Made by a program: the position numbers and the translations under genes. Shown here in pieces: positions 16,070-45,461 of a DNA stretch of 64,000 nt (position 1 is the stretch's first letter; the number at the start of each line of letters is the position of its first letter). Under the pieces are notes generated by a model. That model was not told the origin of the DNA. It saw only the letters and a program-made list of their open reading frames with translations, and searched no databases. Source of the DNA: Pseudisothecium myosuroides (lineage: Eukaryota > Streptophyta > Bryopsida > Hypnales > Lembophyllaceae); contig OX637296.1 of assembly GCA_951799445.1 (NCBI GenBank), forward strand, positions 21,762,001 through 21,826,000, in the 5' to 3' direction.

Positions 16070-19000
16070 TTAAGGTGTTGCATTCCATCTTGGTTCATAA
16101 ACCCCTGGGATTAATCTCCATGCTTTAGTATTAGAAAGTTTTTTAATAGGCTCCGTATATGGAAAATAAGTATAATTCCATTTTTGATCTTTGACATTGT
16201 ATAAAACAATGAGAGGATCATGTCCAATAACCTTTATGGCTATATGTTCAACACTTGCCATTACTTCCCATGGAGGCAACTTTAATTTTTCTCCTCTTTT
16301 ATTGTTCTTTTTAAATAATAATGTATACATATCTTTAGGCATGATACCTTCAGTTAAGACATTGTAAGAACCTGTGGGGGTACCATCTTCATTAACAACA
16401 ACTTCAATAATAAATAAAATTTCTGAATTTTTTCTAAATTGGGTTTGTCGAGATACAGCATATATTTTAGTATTAAATCCAATTTGAACAAGCTTTGGTG
16501 GTTCAACAACCTTAATAAAATATATATCTCCAGCCTTAGTAAAATCAATAATTAATTGTTGCCTTTTAGAATTATTTATATTAAAATAGAATATGACAGG
16601 TTTGGGACGGTGTTTTTTTTTTAGAGAAATTTGTGAAAAAATTTGTAGGCCACCATAATAAATAGAGCATCCACAAACAACAATATTAGAATATCCTAAT
16701 TTTATAAATGATGGAGCTGCATTTAAAATATGTTCAAAATGAACCCAAGATTCTTTAATAGAGCAATATACTACCAATGAAATTTGTGTACTTCCAAAAA
16801 TTTGAATATCATCATCATGTATTGTTTCTTTACAATGGGATACTCCTATAACAATCAAACGATATGTCGTTCTTGTACTATCGTAAAAAACTAAACGAGC
16901 TATCTTACGTTGTAATATTTTGTATGGTATTGGAGGTAAAAACTTTATATCATAAGTAAGAGGATTTGTTATTATTATTGTCGATTTATTTTTGTCTTGA
17001 TCACTCAAATTTTGTTCATTCCTTTCTCTTTTCACAACAATAAGTCCACCATCACAAGCAATTATATTGTCGAAGTCTAATTCTAAATATCTAATGTTGG
17101 GAAGATTTACCCATTGTTTTTGATAATATTCTATAGTACAAGTATCAGGTGCATTAATTAAGTATTGATAATAATCCAAGCCCAAAATTCGTCTTTGTAT
17201 GTTAACTTCAGCAAAATTTGTTGCTATGACACAAGGAAAATAAAATTTGTATTTTTTACGTTCTATACTATGTAATTTTACATTAGACGGTGACCAATTT
17301 GAAGCTTTGAACATATGAATAATTGTATCTTCAAATTCCAAATCGCAATTATCACTAGGTTTTTTGTATAATGCCCATGATTCATCAAGTTGAATCCAAG
17401 GACATTCTATAAAATGTTTTGCCATGTCTTTAGGTTCGAGGATTTTTTGGGAACTTTCATTCAAATTATTTTTTGCCATGCATGCATTTTCATCATTGAT
17501 AGGGTTAGGTTCAATGATTTTTTGGGAACTTTGCTTGTAAATATTGAAAGGAAGAGGTTCATTTAATATTTGTTTTATTAGATCCCATGCATACGCTTCA
17601 CTAACTTTTTTTTCTTCAAGAAGAAGGATAAATTTTTGAACATCGTCTACAGTGTAATGTCCACGACGAAAATTAGTCACATATTCCCATCCATTTACAT
17701 GTAAATTTACAAGGTCTGTGAAAATTCCAAGTATTTCTTTCTCAGGATTATGGTCAATAACAATAAATTTATCAAATCCTTTTATTGTTTTATTTCCTAT
17801 ATAGTTAATAACTTGTCCTTGCCACATTTCACCTCCAGAAGGATTTTTTCGCTTACTACGCTGAACACATTTCAAACCAGATTTAGAATGTGTAAATCCT
17901 AAAGCTTGTCTCTTCATTGACCATATATAATCATCATTGCTCCAATTTTTCATTTCTTCAAAGTCGTCTTTATAATTAGATAAAGGAAAATTAAAATTAA
18001 AATTTTTAAACTGCATTTCTAATTTAAGAGCCAATAAATCTTGCACCCTAGCAGCTCTCTCACAAGTGGCATAAAGTCCAATTTTCCAATTTTCATTTTT
18101 AAGACCTAACTTAGGTAGTGTTGCTTGCCAACCGCCCTTAACCTTATAAATACCTCTGTATCCATCTAGTATATAATACTTTCTTACTCGTTTTTGTTTA
18201 TTTTTTTTTGTATTGCTATCTATTGATCCAAGAAGAGGTTCTCCTTGAATTTCATTCAGTTCTTCAATAGGCTCTTGAAAACCATCTTTCATCATTTCAG
18301 CAAAGGGTTCTTGGCAACAAAGTTCATTAGTTTCTTCATTAGGTGCGTCAATAGGTTCTTGAAAATCATCTTTCATCATTTCAACAAAGGATTCTTGGCA
18401 ACAAAGTTCATTAGTTTCTTCATTAGGTGCATCAATAGGTTTTTGAAAATCATCTTTCATCATTTCAACAACGGATTCTTGGCAACAAAGTTCATTAGTT
18501 TCTTCATTAGGTGCGTCAATAGGTTCTTGAAAATCGTCTTTCATCATTTCAACAAAGGATTTATGGCAACAAAGTTCATTTACTTCATTAGTTTCTTCAT
18601 TAGGTTCGTCAATAGGTTCTTGAAAATCATCTTTCATCATTTCAACAAAGGATTCTTGGCAACAAAGTTCATTAGTTTCTTCATTAGGTGCATCGATAGC
18701 ATCATTCATCATTTCAACAAAGGATTCCTTTTGAAGTTCATTAGTTTTTTCACTTATTTTTCTTAATAATTCTTTTGTGTTATGGCTTATCAAGTCAGCA
18801 GACACTAAAGAGGTTTTGTCCTTATTAAGTACATAAGTACATTTCACGTTAACATCTTGAGCATCAGATAAAATAGACGCTTCATTAGAACCTTGAGAAC
18901 ATGCTTTAAAGTTTGTATTTTTGTCATCAATAGCCTTTAAAGCCATTTCATTTGGATTTTTTTCAAGGTTACTTTTATCATTTATATGAATCATATCTTC

Positions 19001-21075
19001 ATTGTTTGCTAACTGTGTAATTTGTTCTATTAATAGAGGAGCAATTGTATGGGAGGTACTGCTACATTGATTGTCTAGATTTTTAGCATCAGAATTTATT
19101 AGATTGGATATATCTGGTAGGTCAAAGTTATTGGTACTAGGAAATTCTTTTGGAACTTCAAAATTTAAAGACATATCATTTGTAATAATAGAATTAGGTA
19201 TATCTACAAAGTGAGTATTTTGATCGCTAGGAAATTCATCGGGAATGTCAAATTGCAAGATTGCATCTTGTATATTTATATTATCACCAATGTGATAATC
19301 ATTTAATATGGGTGTATCAAAGGGTAGATCTGTAATGTCAATGTCTAAACTTGGGGGCATATCATTTATATTTATTACATCTTCATTTTGATTAGTAGCA
19401 GAGATAAATGAAAATGCATTACTTTGTATGGCAAATTCATTCTTATAGTTAAATTGAAATTCATGTGGAATTGGTATAATTGAAGGTGCATAAGTATCTA
19501 GAGGTGATGGCATGAGTAGAGGTAATGACATAGGAATTTTTGGAGGTACTTGCTCATGAGTCTTTAGAGGTGATGGTGCACGGCTATTTGCAAGTGATTG
19601 ATGGGAAGTTGATGTTGGAGAGTTAAAACAAGGAGTTCTTATTCTTTTGGTTGCAGGGCCTTCATTGAAAAGGGATTTATTTAAGCTATTAGTTATATAT
19701 AAGGCTTTTTGGTTGTGAATTTTTCTTTTTAATTTTTGTTGAGAGTATGGTCCTGAAGGAGTACGATGTGCTATGTCTTCTAAATACTTTGTTGCATTTT
19801 CTGAATCAATCTTTGCCATTTCATTTAATAATGAATCCAAAGTTACGTGATATAATTGATCAAGGTTTATATTTGTAGCATTAAATAAGTGATCTTCAAC
19901 ACTATGCAAGATTGTGTCTTCATGATCCTCACTTACATGACTAGGTGCTTGCATGGCTTGTTCCGTAGGCAGTAGGAAAGTAGACAATGACGGTACTTCT
20001 AAATGATTTTCAGTATTTTGATCGTGAATGTTTTGATTTTCTAATATTAACTAACATAAAATAGATTGATATATTAGATGCAATCTACTTATTTCTAATA
20101 ATTTGAATTTATATTTAAATATATCATATTTTGCATTATAATTCAATATTGTTACTAACAATCATATTTTGATTTGAACCTCTTGATTTGATTTTTGTAT
20201 GAGATTTGCATTTGAAAAATCAAAATGTATTAAAAAAATTATGTACAAACTTTCTTTGCAAGTAATTGTCATTGATAACAAAATATTATTTTGTTGAAAA
20301 CATTGCATTCAATACACATTGCAAGCTAATTATAATACTAAAGTGCTAAGTGCTACAAAAAGCTTACTCAATTCTTATTGATTTTTCTATTCATTAATAT
20401 TTATCAAAATATATAATGAAATTATGAATTATTTATTAAAACAATAAAACTTTAAAATAAAATAATATAAATAAGATATATAAAATTTTCACAAATTATA
20501 TGTGATATATCAATTATAATTCAAATGTAAAATATAAAACATTATAAATTATGATATTTAGCAATATTTGAATTAAATAGCTTTTTATACACTATCATAT
20601 TGGAATGACTAGTCACAATAATAAATTATTCCAAGCTATTATTTACAGTACAAAATCTGTTAATAAATCTTTTATAAAATTATTATTGTTCAAACATGAA
20701 AAAACAAATGTCGACCATTCATCACTATTTATCATTTCATCTTTTATTTTTATAAAATATTTAAGTATTTCTAATTCTAAATTCTAAATAAATTCTAAAA
20801 ATAAATTACTTGATTTTAAATCATTTTATATATTTTTAATTAATATGATCAATAATACAATTAAATAATGAATTATTTAATTTTGTTTAATATATGTAAA
20901 CCTGTCTTTCTAAAATATTAATTTTTTTGTGGTAATTTGAAGCTATTTCTTGCACAAAATCAAAATTTTCAATTTCATCGTATACAACGTTGTTAATGTA
21001 ATCTTGATAAATATCATTTTCATGATTTGAATGTCTAATATTAGAATCTTTTGAATTTTGAAATTCAGACTCCAT
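16070..21075 (-). CDS. Double-AP2 (ANT-type) protein with C-terminal F-box-associated/kelch-like domain
   Basis: Exon 1 is 20902-21075 (58 codons from ATG) and exon 2 is 16070-20050; the join is in phase and gives 1384 residues. The second exon has no ATG near its 5' end. The 5' exon is inferred from donor ACAG|GTTTAC and acceptor ATGTTAG, and it creates a continuous coiled-coil-like stretch (INILERQLILENQ). Residues ~90-490 are acidic, Ser/Asn-rich low complexity. Residues ~494-659 are six 28-residue repeats. Residues ~681-747 match an AP2 domain (GYRGIYKVKGGW...ERAARVQDLLALK). The linker NFPLSNYKDDFEEMKNW and a second, degenerate AP2 unit (~781-850) follow, the order seen in AINTEGUMENTA/PLETHORA factors. 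Residues ~935-1384 resemble the propeller of plant F-box proteins (DGGLIVV, then ITNPLTYDIKFLPPI). No F-box is visible. DNA binding is inferred and may be lost. The long frame without stops argues for selection. Confidence 0.8.
18245..18745 (-). repeat. 84-bp in-frame tandem repeat inside the AP2-like gene, 6 units
   Basis: Each unit encodes about 28 residues with the pattern ESFVEMMKDDFQEP, IDAPNEETNELCCQ. Units two to five are nearly identical at the DNA level, one carries a short NEV insertion, and the two outer units are shortened or diverged. This indicates recent expansion by slippage or unequal exchange. A 173-codon frame on the opposite strand (18245-18766) is a mirror product of the repeat, not a gene. 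Confidence 0.95.
20051..20901 (-). other. Inferred intron of the AP2-like gene
   Basis: 851 bp and very AT-rich. The donor on the minus strand is CAG|GTTTAC and the acceptor is ATTTTATGTTAG|TTA with a T-rich lead. Both fit plant consensus and phase is kept, but no transcript evidence is available. Confidence 0.55.
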
Positions 21076-24000
21076 TTTTTTAAATATTGAAAAAAAAATT
21101 GTCTTATAATTTTTTTGGTTTTATTGTGTTTTAAAAAATTAAACCTTAAAAACTAATAGATACTAAAGAATGTTAAATATATTTAAATTTAAATTTTTCA
21201 ATAAATATATCAATACAAATATACTAAATACAAAAATTAGATATACCAAAAGATAAATTCTAGAATATTTTCAAAATACATCTGATAATGAATTTAATAG
21301 TTGAAATATGTATTCAAATTTTTCTCAATTCATCATTTATATATCTAAAAAATCAAATTTGTTCAGTTCTCTTCATTCAATACTAATAAAACTAGTATTT
21401 AAAAATCTCTATAATTATGTAGCTAACTATTTATGTGCTATTTCTAATTTTTTGGAATATTGTATAACTCACAAAACTTCAAAGCTATATATTTGAGGTT
21501 TACAATTCATATATTATATCATGCCTCAAATAAATATTGTTTCCATAAGAAATAAAATTTCAAATTATTCTTTAATTATTGAAATAAAAAAATTGTTCTT
21601 AAAATTATTTATTTATTTATTTATTTTGAATTAAATAAAATCCTACCAATGCTTATATTGTCAGAAAATTAATGTATCAATGTCTTTAAGGAAAATAGAT
21701 TAATTACTAAAATAACTTATAAAATGAATTCTAAAAGATTTATATGATTTTTTCATAAATCATACATTTAAGTCATGAATCAAATACATAAATACTTAAA
21801 TTATGTAATTCTATCTCATATATATATAAAATATCATTAAAAAAATTTAGTCTGGCTACATTTTTAGTAAATGAAGTCACCAAAGTTCTAGTCAATTGTT
21901 TCATTTTTTTATTAAATGCTTTGACTTATATTTTGAAATAGATTTACGTTAAATTTTGAGGTTCAAAATGAGATAAATAAGCATAAATTGATGAATTGAT
22001 AAATTAATTTATACTCATACAAAAATATTGAAAATTTAATTAATGGATTATAATTAGTACATGTTTTTAATTTGCATTGATTTAGAAGAAATTGAAATTT
22101 TCATATTAAATGAAGTTTTAATAAATTTAAAAACATTAGATATAATTATTAGCACAATTTTAAAAATTATAATTATAATTATATTTTGTAAGTCTACAAT
22201 ACAATAATATTGTCAAAAATTTAAAATATAGACCGTAAAAGATGTAACATGATTTTTATTAATTATTTAATACATTTTATATATTATAAATATATGCCTA
22301 TATAAACATTGATTTATTTTTTAAATTTAAAGCATTGAATATATGTAAGTAGAAAATATATGTATTGATAAAAATTGATTAAAGTTTTAAGAAATCAACA
22401 ATGTCATTTTTATTTTTACTAGATACCAATTAGTATATCTCACTATAGTTTTTTTAATTTCTTAAGGTATTATATATTATTTTTTTTATAAAAAGCTTAT
22501 TTATATTGATATTTTGAAAATGATAATTCAACATTTACATAACCATAATCCAATTTTTTTATTACTTATAAACTAAACCTATATCAACTTCATAGTCTAA
22601 ATAATATAAATGTTAATAAAAAAAATTATCCAAATTACTTAAAAAATTTCAATCTTATGATTAATCTATTATGAATATTGTGCCACTAATAGTTTTAAAG
22701 CTAAAAAACAAACCAAATCTTGACATCATATAAGATAAATTTAGATATTTAAAATCATTGAAACATTGTGACTTTTTATTGATTATTTTATATTAGATTA
22801 TACTCCATAATCTACTACATTGGACTAAAGCTATGATTATTTAATTATTTGTTAAAAAATATAGAATTGTATTATACCATCAAATGTAACAATAGTTAAA
22901 ATTTCAACTTGTGATCTATAAAACAAAATAAAGGCCATGATAGTACATCATTGAAGAAAAAACTGTTGAACATATTTTGGCATCACTGTATTCATTAAAG
23001 AATATAAACTTTTATATATAGCTCTTTCCATCTTCAATGCTTCTAAAATGAAGATTTTGTAAATTTTTTTTTTAATAATTTGAAAAACAAAGAATATTAA
23101 GATTGTATTTTTTTAAAGCATTGATATACTAAATTTAATTTATTATAATACTACTAGGATACTACTGCTTTTGTTGTTGTAAGTGATGACCAATTGAAGA
23201 TTGAAGACTTTTAAAATGTTCAAACACGTAATTTCATCAATTGAGCTAAACTTCACATTAAATTTATAAAGAAAAATTTATAAAGAAATTGTGCTTAAAA
23301 AAACTCTTCAACTCTTATCAATTGTTCTTAAAACCTCTAAAACTAGAATACCGGAATAATGATGCCTCAAAATTCCATGGATTCATATCATGGACCTTAG
23401 AATTGGATCTTATATTCATCAATAATTTTTTTTTATTATTAATACAAAAAGATCAATTAAACTAATTCCAACTAGGAAGTCATCACTAGGATCCAACCTA
23501 AAAGTCACCACTTAAATCAATCAACGATACTAAAATGTATGTGAAAGTTTATATGTAAAATAGGTAATTAATTTACTAATGTAGATTATGTAGGATAGAG
23601 TTGTTGAATAAGACCATTGGTAACCAATGTTTGACATCCTTTCAATGTAAATATTATAGTGCATAACTCTATATATTAAAATATCTCCTTCCTTGTTCAA
23701 TTTAAAATTTAAAATTCACCCTTGTTTGAATTTTTTTGAATTTTTTTACAATATTTGATAGAATTTAGTAAGATTTAGCAATAACTTCTAACAAATATTG
23801 AACATCGAGACTTTGTCTTATTTAAAAAGTTACTTTTAAACATTGTTGAATGCTTTGATATAAGAACAACTCAAAAATTTCTTTTAAAATGGATTTGAAA
23901 TCTACTATTATATAAGTATAGTAAAACAAATAGTTTCCAAAAAATTAGCACCACTTTATTTAAGGGACCCTATCTTTGAACTTACATAGTTTCTAAGACT

Positions 24001-31440: not shown

Positions 31441-33114
31441 CGCCGTCTTCTTCTTCTTCACCAATTATTTGCAAATTCTTATCCTCGTCTCGTCATCTCC
31501 GCCTTCAGAATTGCGTCGACTTTGTTTGTGCCTGTCGGTGCTACAGTTGTTATTTGGAGGAGAATCACATGGAAAAGAAGCGGCGATGGTGATGAGTTTG
31601 AGCAAATCTATTTTTAGAGGGCTGGATTTTGCTTGGCGTGGAGTATAGTTGGAGGTTTTCCCGCAAGGCTCTGACGATGGCGTTTTCCATGGTGCGATAT
31701 CTTTGCTTGGTTGCGTGCAGTAGTGTTGCGGGACTGAATGGAATTAATTAGTTTGCTGTAAGCTTGTGGCAGAGGGACTAAATGTTATGGTTTGAGATCA
31801 TGCGCACTGTATGCTTGAATTGGTCTGTCGGTCTGGGGGAACTAAACCCTAAAGGTTGCAACGACAATTGCGACGTAAATTAGGGTTATGAATTTGGTAC
31901 CCGTGAATAGTTCCATGCCGAATGCTTTTGGTCGCAGCTTGTGGCGGTGTGGGGAAGTGTTCCGCTGCGAATTATGGATTGCGGTAAATCCTAATGGTTG
32001 AAATTAGGGTGCTCTGGATTTTAATTTTTGGATTTTTTCTGGGTTTTTTGCGTCGTCGACTTTGTGGTTTTTGTGGTGTGAATTGCTTCCCTTTGATTTC
32101 AACTCGAATCAGTTCATTTTGTTATCCTTAGAAAACTGGAAATTGGGCCTCTTTTTTTTCTTAGCAGTTTTGGGTAGGTTACACGGAAGCTTTCTTTTGT
32201 TCAGTTTAATTCATTTTTTTCCAGCATGTGCAATGGTCTTCGCTGATTCTGGGGATATGACATTTGACTCTATCTGAATTCTATTATATTCGCAATATAA
32301 TCATTCAGAATTTTTGTCCTTTAAGGGTTATGGCGTGAACAGAAATGTGGACTGCAAGTTCTGAGCGTCGTCGTGCTTGCTGCAGTTGGCGTTTGTTGAG
32401 GCCTGGTTTTGAGATTTCGAGGATGTTGCCCTGGGAGGTGATCTGTGTTGCGAAAATTTCACAGTCAGAGCTTTGTTCATGAATTTTCGACCATCAGGTG
32501 CGTTACTCTGCGCATGTCGTGTGATGCAATTTGATTCTCAGCTTGTACAGAAGAGATTTGTGAGTTCGGTAAGTCGTTGTTTCGTTCACTGATGTTTTTC
32601 TGCTGATTTGCTGACAGCGGCTCTAGAATTTTGATACAACTGGTCCGATTCTCTGTAAGGAATTTCTTGTGTAATTTGAAATACATCAGGTGGACCAATA
32701 CAAGTGACAATGGACAACCCCATTTCCATTCAAAGATCAGTGGCGATCTGTGACCATTTTCTTAGGGGCCAAGTCGCGCTTCCATCCTACTTGCCAATCG
32801 AAGGCCAACCTGATGTAGTAAAAGAGTTGAATTGCTGGTGATAACGGGGGCCAGTCATTAGGAGATGGGATCAAGTCCCCTAACGGTTTAGTATCCGCTA
32901 CGTTATAAGGTAGTTGGCGCAATTAGTATTTGGAAGAGTGACTGTAACTGTGCTGTAGACCTGAACTGATCGGTGATTAGAGGGTTCATGATTTTTCATC
33001 CAAATTCATAGTACTAAATAGTTTCTTCTCTTTATTAGGTTTGAGAAACTGACTCTGCTCACTCTTGTGAATCTGTAAGCAGGGACGTACGAGAGCAGTT
33101 ATCGTGTGGTCAAC
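31441..33114 (+). promoter_or_regulatory. Probable promoter and spliced 5' leader of the Mpo1-like gene
   Basis: The region is markedly more GC-rich than the DNA to its left, with a CT-rich leader-like tract at 31448-31510 (CTTCTTCTTCTTC). A telo-box AAACCCTAA lies near 31845. A 3' splice site GTAAGCAG|GGACG lies near 33080, 35 bp before the ATG, suggesting an intron in the 5' UTR. No coding exon could be recognised in this stretch, but one cannot be excluded. Confidence 0.45.
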
Positions 33115-33453
33115 ATGCATTTCAGGAATTTTGAAGAGTTTTGGCCGTTCTATGTCAACCAACACTCAAAAGCGTCAACACGGAGATGGCATTTCTGTGC
33201 AACCGGATGCGCAACCCTGTTTTTTATAGCCGCGATTGCGATCAAATGGTGGCTGTTGTTTTGTGCTCCTCTCTTTGGGTACGGGCTTGCCTGGTACAGC
33301 CATTTCTTCATCGAAGGAAACACGCCGGCCGCTTTCGGCCATCCAATCTGGTCCTTCATTTGCGACTATAAGATGTTCATCTTGATGCTGACTGGGCGGA
33401 TGGATCGTGAGATAAAGCGGCTGGGGAAAAGGCCCATGCTTCAGGTTTCATAA
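33115..33453 (+). CDS. Mpo1-like / DUF962 small membrane protein
   Basis: 112 residues from the ATG in AACATGCATTTC; the frame is also open upstream of it, but without an ATG. The family includes yeast Mpo1, an Fe(II)-dependent ER dioxygenase that shortens 2-hydroxy fatty acids in phytosphingosine breakdown (alpha-oxidation). Visible family features are FWPFYVNQHSKASTRRWHF near the N terminus (His17, His26), two hydrophobic segments (about 30-43 and 45-60), YSHFFIEGN (His63) and FGHPIW (His76); these His residues are candidate metal ligands. The length fits the short plant DUF962 group. The tail KRLGKRPMLQ is typical of that group. The stop comes right after a possible donor (CAG|GTTTC), so the last two residues may differ. 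A polyadenylation signal lies at 33936-33941. Confidence 0.88.
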   Translation: MHFRNFEEFWPFYVNQHSKASTRRWHFCATGCATLFFIAAIAIKWWLLFCAPLFGYGLAWYSHFFIEGNTPAAFGHPIWSFICDYKMFILMLTGRMDREIKRLGKRPMLQVS

Positions 33454-43577: not shown

Positions 43578-45461
43578 ATGGGCAAGGGACCAGGAATGTA
43601 CTCCGACATTGGCAAGAAGACCAAAGGTGTGATATGCTAGTATTCTCTTATGTTTGTTCAACCTTGTTCGCCTACTCCTCTTATTGCTTCCTCTTGCTTC
43701 TTGTTTACGTCGCCCTCAAATTACTTGTACATTACATCTTGCCTTACTAGTGATTATCAACATTTTATTAGGTGCGTCTGTTTTATGTAGCATCAGTGGC
43801 ATCGAAAGAAAATTCTGTAGTCATTTATTCAGGATTCCTTGTAGATTTAATCATGCTAATATCATATGAGCAGTAATGAGCATTTCAGCCGTTCTGATCA
43901 GTTTATCTCCTCTACTGTTTCAAACCGGGTAGTTACGCCCTTCCATTTAGCTGTCTCCTATTCCATTTTATTATATACTAGGTGTTTCTTTGATAACCGA
44001 GTACCCTTTGTAGTCAGGTTTTACACGCTGATGATTATATGGGGTTTGAATTTCGATCCTTCGATTTTCTTATTATCTTATTTCTGTACAGATCTTCTTA
44101 ACAAGGACTACACCTATGACCAGAAATTTGTGATCACCACAAACACTCAGTCTGGATTGGTAAGCCATTTTTGGTCACACTGCTCAGTTGAGGGCATCAT
44201 TTGGTCCATATCGTTTGTAATTGGTATCTCCGTTGTAAATGGCCTTCTAATTTCTCAGGAGGTGCTTCGAAAGTAAGGGTGGGCGAAGACGATCTTCATA
44301 TTTCTTGCTCAGCCGCCTTTATTTCTGATTTTTATGTTATTTTTGTTACTGAGAAATTATTCAATCACTTCTGCAGGCTTTCACCTCCACTGGTGTGAAG
44401 AGAGGGGAGGGATTCTCTGGTGATGTCAATACATCTTTCGTAAACAAGAACATCACGGCTGATGTGAAAGTTGACACCAAGTCAAACGTAGGTCTCAAAT
44501 CACTCGACTTGACAGGAAATACCTTCTTATACTCTTCTATGGAGACTAATGATATTGATCTCTGTTCTGGAAGTACCTGTCACTAACGTTCTCTTTTACG
44601 ATTTTTTTTACAGATTTTTGCTACCGTCACCGTCGACGAATTCGCACCAGGAGCCAAGAGTGTGTTCACCTTCACGATTCCCGATCACAAGTCTGGCAAG
44701 GTAATACGAAACTAGTGTTTGCGTACAGTGATCATTGGAATTAAATTTCTCTTCGAGGGCTGAGAACAGGCGTGTAAGAGTGCTACTGTAACCTTTGTAT
44801 GATGTGTGTGCAGCTTGAGCTTTTGTACAAGCAAGACTTCTGTGGAATTAGTGGCAGTATCGGTTTGACGCCCACACCTATTGTGGAGGCTACCGGAGCT
44901 CTCGGAAGCGAGGGATTTTCTGTTGGTGGCGAGCTTGCTTTTGACACTGCATCGGGATCTCTTATTAAATACAACGCTGGTCTTGGATTCGTGAAGCCCG
45001 ACTTCAATGCCTCTTTGATCTTGTACGCTATCTTACTTCATGAATGATCATTTGTAGCATGTTTAACCTTCGGTTTTATATATTTCGCCCTCTGGCATGG
45101 CGTATTCTGCGTCTCAACTCCTCCCGTGACGGCTGTTGCACTTGGACAATGCAGGGCTGAGAAAGGTGACCTTCTCAAGGCTTCATACCTGCACACTGTG
45201 AGCCCAGTATCCAGGACAACTGTGGCCGCCGAGATTGCACACAGGTTTTCAAAGAATGAGAACACTTTCACCGTTGGAGGCCTTTACGAGTTGGACGCTT
45301 TGACTACAGTGAAGGCACGGTTGAACAACCATGGAAAGTTGGCATCTCTTCTTCAGCATGAGTGGAGGCCCAAGTCTCTGATTACCTTCTCCGGGGAAGT
45401 GGACACCAAGTCTTTGGATAAGACAGCGAAGATTGGTTTGGCGTTGGCTCTGAAGCCTTGA
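43578..45461 (+). CDS. VDAC: Mitochondrial outer-membrane porin VDAC
   Basis: Six exons (43578-43626, 44092-44159, 44377-44487, 44614-44700, 44814-45022, 45155-45461) join in phase to 276 residues, exactly the usual plant length. VDAC is the 19-strand beta-barrel through which ATP, ADP and small metabolites cross the outer mitochondrial membrane. The N-terminal pore helix and first strand are visible (MGKGPGMYSDIGKKTKDLLN), as is the GLAFTSTGVKRG segment. The eukaryotic porin signature lies near the C terminus (YELDALTTVKARLNNHG), and the tail KIGLALALKP is typical. All introns are GT-AG. The ATG lies in CACCATGG, a strong context. The gene is divergent from IFT54. An inverted copy of part of the signature exon lies in the likely 3' UTR. 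Confidence 0.97.

What the first reader, a model, noticed from the sequence alone, without database searches (positions are those of the whole stretch)
16070..21075. Fusion of an AINTEGUMENTA-type double-AP2 region to an F-box-associated/kelch-like domain
The long minus-strand frame contains an AP2 unit, the characteristic linker (NFPLSNY...EEMK, then ...RQALGF) and a degenerate second AP2 unit in the ANT/PLETHORA order. These are followed by ~450 residues resembling the propeller that plant F-box proteins use to hold substrates. No F-box is present. I know of no described protein with this layout. It could be a DNA-bound adaptor or a former transcription factor turned substrate receptor. Domain calls are by eye.
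Basis: partly seen in the sequence, partly recalled or inferred. Interest (0 to 1): 0.85.

Follow-up and report, generated by a model that had tools for sequence, protein, structure and literature searches.

The report
Plant double-AP2 plus propeller fusion protein
A plant, probably a moss, carries a small family of large proteins that join a worn transcription-factor DNA-binding pair to a propeller-like protein-binding domain; the joined form appears to be kept by selection and I found no report of it.

Summary
Window 16070-21075 (-) is best read as one two-exon gene (1384 aa; intron 20901-20051). AP2 repeat 1, the ANT/WRI linker, a degenerate AP2 repeat 2 and a C-terminal module lie in one 1326-codon open exon. 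A profile of fused genes of this genome alone finds WRINKLED1 (7wq5) at E=2.2e-18. The C-terminal module matches some F-box-protein propellers of the same genome (sets: prob 93.0-98.7; single proteins 0.2-97.9; reversed single controls at most 0.6). Neither module passes a Pfam cut-off. No F-box was detected.

It is not a stray chimera. Three paralogues on other chromosomes have the layout, one with two AP2 pairs. Two unnamed ENA proteins have it whole; two JGI pieces pair with the C5 and C1 copies. dN/dS against the nearest paralogue is 0.375 (AP2) and 0.309 (C-terminal).

Residues that contact DNA in ERF1 (list recalled) are kept in 2 of 56 and 9 of 56 cells, but the module stays basic. Most likely a nuclear adaptor descended from a transcription factor. 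Both structure models are poor, there are no expression data, and function is inferred.

The parts
20902..21075 (-). Exon 1, 58 codons from ATG, ending at a GT donor
   Evidence: ATG, length (174 b) and donor shared with C7 paralogue L009
20051..20901 (-). Intron, 851 b, GT...AG, phase 0
   Evidence: same place in L009; no transcript seen
16070..20050 (-). Exon 2: 1326 codons plus stop, holds every domain
19958..19975 (-). Conserved N-terminal motif LLPxEQ
   Evidence: In window, L009, L011, P0001, P0002
19616..19729 (-). Conserved stretch KRK...LYITNSLNKSLFNEGPATKRxRTPxFNSP: basic, NLS-like, with SP/TP sites (NLS reading by eye)
   Evidence: In whole or part in window, L009, L010, L011, P0001, P0002
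18264..18699 (-). 84-b in-frame tandem repeat, 5.1 copies (28-codon unit)
   Evidence: C7 and C1 show single similar units, C5 a different in-frame repeat (by eye)
17975..18166 (-). AP2 repeat 1 (residues about 687-750)
   Evidence: modelled as three strands and a helix at low confidence
17894..17992 (-). ANT/WRI-type linker NFPLSNY...RQALGF (residues 745-777; its first residues also close repeat 1)
17654..17881 (-). AP2 repeat 2, degenerate (residues about 782-857), ends VTNFRRGHY
17546..17653 (-). Conserved tail ...WDLIKQILNEPLPF (residues 858-893)
17273..17440 (-). Segment before the propeller (residues 929-984), helical in a low-confidence model; lies where F-box proteins carry the F-box, no significant F-box similarity
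16073..17245 (-). Kelch/F-box-associated type propeller domain (residues about 994-1384)
   Evidence: weakly 64

Best explanation
What it is (from sequence): a conserved small family of single-gene fusions of an ANT/WRI-type AP2-linker-AP2 module with an F-box-associated, kelch-like propeller that has no recognisable F-box, behind a long, fast-evolving N-terminal region. How it works (inferred): a nuclear adaptor descended from a transcription factor. The propeller holds a partner protein. The AP2 pair, with an eroded DNA-contact face but a partly kept core and a well kept linker, serves mainly as a protein- or chromatin-docking module, so the protein brings its client to transcription or chromatin complexes. 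It is not itself an SCF subunit. My odds: identity and architecture about 0.9; nuclear adaptor mechanism about 0.45.
For: Architecture: WRI1 2.7e-8 and 2.2e-18; fused-only profile against the set L071, L076-L078: prob 93.0, wider family 98.7; against the set L071-L075: 94.9 and 97.5; one exon. Conservation: four fused loci found by two queries; P0001 and P0002 whole; P0003 joins the end of repeat 2 to the module in one frame. Trees of the two halves each set the fused rows apart and pair W with C7 and P0001 with P0002. Selection: W/C7 dN/dS 0.375 for AP2, 0.309 for the C-terminal module. DNA face: 2 of 56 and 9 of 56 ERF1-contact cells kept, against 55 of 91 and 41 of 91 core cells. NLS-like motif, by eye.
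Against: Localisation, partners and expression are untested. The AP2 module is still basic (net +5 to +13, pI 9.3-9.7), and the canonical-looking pair L017 is no more so (net +4). The ERF1 contact list is recalled and is a poor yardstick for ANT-type pairs: L017 keeps 3 of 8 positions in repeat 1 and 2 of 8 in repeat 2. For W/C5 the AP2 repeats show dN/dS of 1.0, at dS 0.73-0.78. Repeat 2 has weaker support than repeat 1. Four of eight single F-box proteins match the wider module profile at prob under 50, and seven of eight match the fused-only profile at 53 or less. Both AlphaFold models are of low confidence (mean pLDDT 42.6 and 40.0).
Confidence: 0.5

Rival explanations
1. A working transcription regulator: the AP2 pair still binds DNA (a changed site) and the propeller is a co-factor or signal-sensing arm, in the manner of RAV proteins that pair AP2 with B3 (recalled).
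For: Basic AP2 module; AP2 region under purifying selection in W/C7, 0.375; the linker has the lowest dN/dS of the parts compared in four of five fused pairs (0.21-0.37; not in W/C7, 0.369).
Against: 2 of 56 and 9 of 56 ERF1-contact cells kept; the TRHRWTGR stretch of L017 repeat 1 is absent from all seven fused pairs.
Confidence: 0.3
2. An SCF substrate receptor with an F-box too diverged to be called, in residues 929-984.
For: The segment is helical in the low-confidence model, sits directly before the propeller, and in one full-length profile alignment falls on the F-box of L071. With AP2-less relatives added, only 11 of 200 column shuffles score as well.
Against: No Pfam F-box model hits the members scanned. 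With the fused segments alone, 139 of 200 column shuffles score as well; the profile probabilities are 0.13 and 0.90 percent. None of the 149 F-box places listed lies in the four fused loci (150 of 468 candidates scored).
Confidence: 0.12
3. A chance read-through, a mis-joined model, a pseudogene or a gene piece caught by a transposon.
For: AT-rich surroundings (GC 0.18-0.21 at 20-24 kb), fast N-terminal change, in-frame repeats.
Against: Longest open frame of 300 random sequences 178 codons against 1326; exon-intron layout shared with C7 and similarity that runs past both gene ends, as in an ordinary duplication; W/C7 dN/dS about 0.3-0.4 in both halves; same layout in P0001 and P0002.
Confidence: 0.03

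Closest known systems
AP2 family of AP2/ERF transcription factors, ANT/WRI type (WRINKLED1, PDB 7wq5; AINTEGUMENTA/PLETHORA recalled)
   Same: Two AP2 repeats in order with the linker NFPxSxYxxDhxEM...RRQSxxF; WRI1 is the only PDB chain found with the fused-only profile at E<=1
   Different: Most ERF1-type DNA-contact residues lost, repeat 2 degenerate, below Pfam's AP2 cut-off, and a large propeller follows
Plant F-box proteins with a kelch/F-box-associated or KIB1-4-type propeller (own-genome L071, L076, L077, L078)
   Same: Propeller signatures (NPLTxxxKxLPPIP...YRLIVxG...YxSxxxSW...YxGG); profile match prob 93.0-98.7 as a set
   Different: No detectable F-box; carried behind AP2 repeats; below every Pfam kelch/KIB cut-off
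AP2-less relatives of the propeller module in the same genome (L012, L013, L014, L018, L053, L054, L062, L063)
   Same: Same C-terminal module, 20-33% identical to the window's
   Different: No AP2 and no F-box in the open frames of L012, L018, L053, L054, L062, L063 or in the module exon of L013 and L014; their further exons were not scanned
RAV proteins (AP2 + B3), recalled
   Same: An AP2 domain joined to a second large module
   Different: One AP2 domain and a second DNA-binding domain, not a propeller (recalled)

Membership tests
AP2 family (double AP2, ANT/WRI type) | Two AP2 repeats joined by the conserved linker | tested here: met
   Repeat 1 and linker; repeat 2, weaker:
AP2 family (double AP2, ANT/WRI type) | Passes the curated AP2 model PF00847 | tested here: not met
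   No hit in window protein; C1 paralogue E=1.5e-4, 22.5 bits against a 33.3 cut-off
AP2 family (double AP2, ANT/WRI type) | DNA-contact residues (ERF1 list, recalled) | tested here: not met
   2 of 56 cells in repeat 1 and 9 of 56 in repeat 2, seven fused pairs; the domains of the 30 best of 87 AP2 hits keep them. Yardstick imperfect: L017, a canonical-looking pair, keeps 3 of 8 and 2 of 8
AP2 family (double AP2, ANT/WRI type) | Sequence-specific DNA binding | not testable with these tools
   needs SELEX/DAP-seq
F-box protein (SCF substrate receptor) | F-box | tested here: not met
F-box protein (SCF substrate receptor) | SKP1 binding | not testable with these tools
   needs a binding assay
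Kelch/F-box-associated propeller | Profile similarity to such propellers | tested here: met
   reversed single-protein controls at most prob 0.6. Not all F-box proteins tested match
Kelch/F-box-associated propeller | Passes a Pfam kelch/FBA/KIB model | tested here: not met
   best among eight members: KIB1-4 E=0.023, kelch models E=0.035 and 0.037
Kelch/F-box-associated propeller | Six-bladed fold | tested here: inconclusive
   Model pLDDT 42.6; Foldseek's best PDB rows are mostly propellers by description, TM at most 0.23 in the top four

The most novel reading that the evidence does not exclude
A plant lineage turned a double-AP2 transcription factor into a chromatin-tethered protein receptor: the AP2 pair aims the propeller, and the client it holds, at nuclear sites without a ubiquitin-ligase box. 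This would be a new kind of transcription-linked adaptor, elaborated once more by a second AP2 pair (C1 copy).
Probability: 0.25. Interest if true: 0.8.

Novelty: new variant of a known kind. Interest (0 to 1): 0.58.

Why it matters
A fusion of a DNA-binding pair with a propeller that has spread to four chromosomes, with both halves constrained between the two nearest copies, gives a testable case of a transcription-factor domain changing job. Neither half passes a Pfam cut-off, so domain-based annotation could leave the gene as unknown, and the family may be overlooked in other genomes (inference).

Tried and rejected
Pfam on whole and cut window proteins: only a spurious Galaxin_repeat hit (E=6.6e-4, under its cut-off) on the tandem repeat, and AF0941-like and BamE noise. 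PDB sequence searches with the C-terminal profiles gave nothing relevant. AlphaFold with 5 and 3 sequences gave poor models; Foldseek on them is a hint only: TEM1 AP2 at prob 0.85 but E=0.09, kelch-like propellers at low TM. The segment 929-984 as a hidden F-box: not significant with the fused set. The divergent double-AP2 genes on the same chromosome, about 43-177 kb away, as donor of the fused AP2: a clade of the seven fused rows with one of them (L079) is rejected, p-AU 0.00085, long branches present. Where the fused AP2 pair roots among AP2 genes is not resolved: one long outgroup. The third protein search found again P0001 and P0003 and nothing new. F-box proteins L072-L075 and L077 match the module weakly or not at all (prob 0.1-58.3), so the likeness is to some F-box propellers, not all. 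C6 (L012) against W gives dN/dS 0.585 in the C-terminal module; its other aligned parts are not homologous AP2 and were not used.
Full report
Setting. The window is G000:C10:21762001-21826000 of an unnamed 388 Mb assembly in 222 contigs. Contigs C1 to C11 are 55.0 to 16.9 Mb and sum to 380.5 Mb; the other three whose length I saw (C12, C13, C20) are 15-28 kb. Plant gene families are present: 87 AP2 places and 149 F-box places, lower bounds. Size and chromosome number fit a pleurocarpous moss: passages of PMC13120521 list Hypnales genomes such as Entodon seductrix (348.4 Mb) and Fontinalis antipyretica (385.2 Mb); n=11 in that order is recalled. The organism is an inference and was not tested.

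Gene. Exon 1 21075-20902, intron 20901-20051, exon 2 20050-16070, 1384 residues. The C7 copy shares ATG, exon 1 length (174 b), donor and acceptor. The C5 copy differs: its N-terminal part is split over at least two open frames. The open frame of 1326 codons is far beyond chance. No transcript data were available.

AP2 half. Single-sequence phmmer against PDB gives WRINKLED1 at 2.7e-8, through both repeats. A profile that includes own-genome AP2-only genes gives 4.2e-47, which is partly circular; the profile of the five fused pairs alone gives 2.2e-18, on repeat 1, linker and the start of repeat 2. Repeat 2 is supported, by two-way matches with own-genome double-AP2 genes and by the alignment, and is weaker. 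Pfam does not see AP2 in the window protein. In the model repeat 1 is three strands and a helix, at low confidence. In seven fused pairs (five here, P0001, P0002) the ERF1 DNA-contact positions (recalled) are kept in 2 of 56 cells in repeat 1 and 9 of 56 in repeat 2; core positions in 55 of 91 and 41 of 91. The canonical-looking pair L017 keeps 3 of 8 and 2 of 8, so this is evidence of erosion and not proof of lost binding. The module stays basic.

C-terminal half. A 456-residue module is shared by the four fused genes and by AP2-less relatives. Against single F-box proteins of the genome the wider family profile gives prob 97.9 (L071), 92.0 (L076), 97.7 (L078), 30.3 (L077), and 41.7, 0.3, 58.3 and 20.7 for L072 to L075; the fused-only profile gives 94.8 for L071 and 0.2 to 53.1 for the other seven. 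Against the set L071, L076-L078 the fused-only profile gives 93.0 and the wider one 98.7; against the set L071-L075, 94.9 and 97.5. Reversed single sequences reach at most 0.6; no reversed control was run for the sets. L071, L076, L077 and L078 are among 13 places that match the KIB1-4 propeller model (12 over its cut-off); L071, L076 and L077 are also among the F-box places, L078 shows an F-box by eye. Strand-rich secondary structure and Foldseek's preference for propellers agree, but the model is poor.

F-box. None by Pfam in the fused proteins or in the open frames of the AP2-less relatives scanned; upstream exons of those relatives were not scanned. The segment 929-984 aligns over the F-box of L071 in one full-length profile alignment. 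In a test of its own 139 of 200 column shuffles score as well for the fused set, and 11 of 200 with relatives added.

Family and selection. Fused loci in this genome: C10 (window), C7, C5, C1; found by the window protein and by the C5 protein, counts being lower bounds. The C1 copy carries two AP2 pairs in one 1396-codon frame. C6 (L012) has the module, a long N-terminal region and no Pfam AP2. In a 5.8-billion-protein collection three searches gave four relatives: P0001 and P0002 with the whole layout, and the pieces P0003 and P0004, which pair with the C5 and C1 copies at 100/100 support. Trees of the two halves, drawn with midpoint roots, each set the fused rows apart (AP2 94/94, C-terminal 97/99) and agree on W+C7 and P0001+P0002; the deeper order among fused rows is not resolved. 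NG86 dN/dS, AP2 pair / C-terminal: W-C7 0.375 / 0.309; W-C1 0.544 / 0.365; W-C5 0.834 / 0.584; C7-C1 0.324 / 0.308; C5-C1 0.511 / 0.497. N-terminal part: 0.53, 0.739, 0.983, 0.738, 0.695; exon 1 W-C7 0.714. The linker is lowest in four of these five pairs, 0.21-0.37. So both halves are constrained, the AP2 repeats less clearly in W-C1 and W-C5.

Mechanism. The kept pieces (linker, part of the AP2 core, propeller, a basic SP/TP-bearing N-terminal motif) and the lost ones (most DNA-contact residues, a recognisable F-box) fit a nuclear adaptor best. This step is inference. Literature: six searches of an open-access library (listed/found: 2/2, 10/44, 9/9, 1/1, 8/39, 8/176) listed no paper whose title or abstract start describes AP2 joined to a kelch or F-box-associated domain. 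PMC4759884, on fusions of plant immune receptors, lists Kelch and F-box among the joined domains in the passages seen; it does not concern AP2 proteins. Subscription journals and preprints were not searched.

Noticed in passing
window 18264-18699: 84-b in-frame tandem repeat in the N-terminal region, 5.1 copies; its other strand makes a spurious 179-codon open frame, 18227-18766 +.
   Followed up: partly
L011 3615-5051 (C1): The C1 fused gene carries two AP2-linker-AP2 blocks in one frame.
   Followed up: partly
L012 1299-4430 (C6): Relative with the C-terminal module behind a long N-terminal region but no Pfam AP2; could be the state before the fusion or a later loss.
   Followed up: partly
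G000:C10 21600651, 21705592, 21734482: Divergent double-AP2 genes (one with stops in frame) about 43-177 kb from the window gene; a clade of the fused rows with L079 is rejected.
   Followed up: yes
G000:C1 6614381/6618743 and C3 6128462/6156964: Pairs of divergent double-AP2 genes in opposite orientation with equal scores; the C1 pair is identical over 422 residues.
   Followed up: no
window 33079-33453 +: Open frame of an Mpo1-like (2-hydroxy-palmitic acid dioxygenase) gene, Pfam E=1.8e-30.
   Followed up: no
window 45048-45461 +: Exon of a mitochondrial-type porin (VDAC) gene, the C-terminal part of Pfam Porin_3, E=5e-27.
   Followed up: no
window 20001-24000: Very AT-rich stretch (GC 0.18-0.21) over exon 1, the intron and upstream of the gene.
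   Followed up: no
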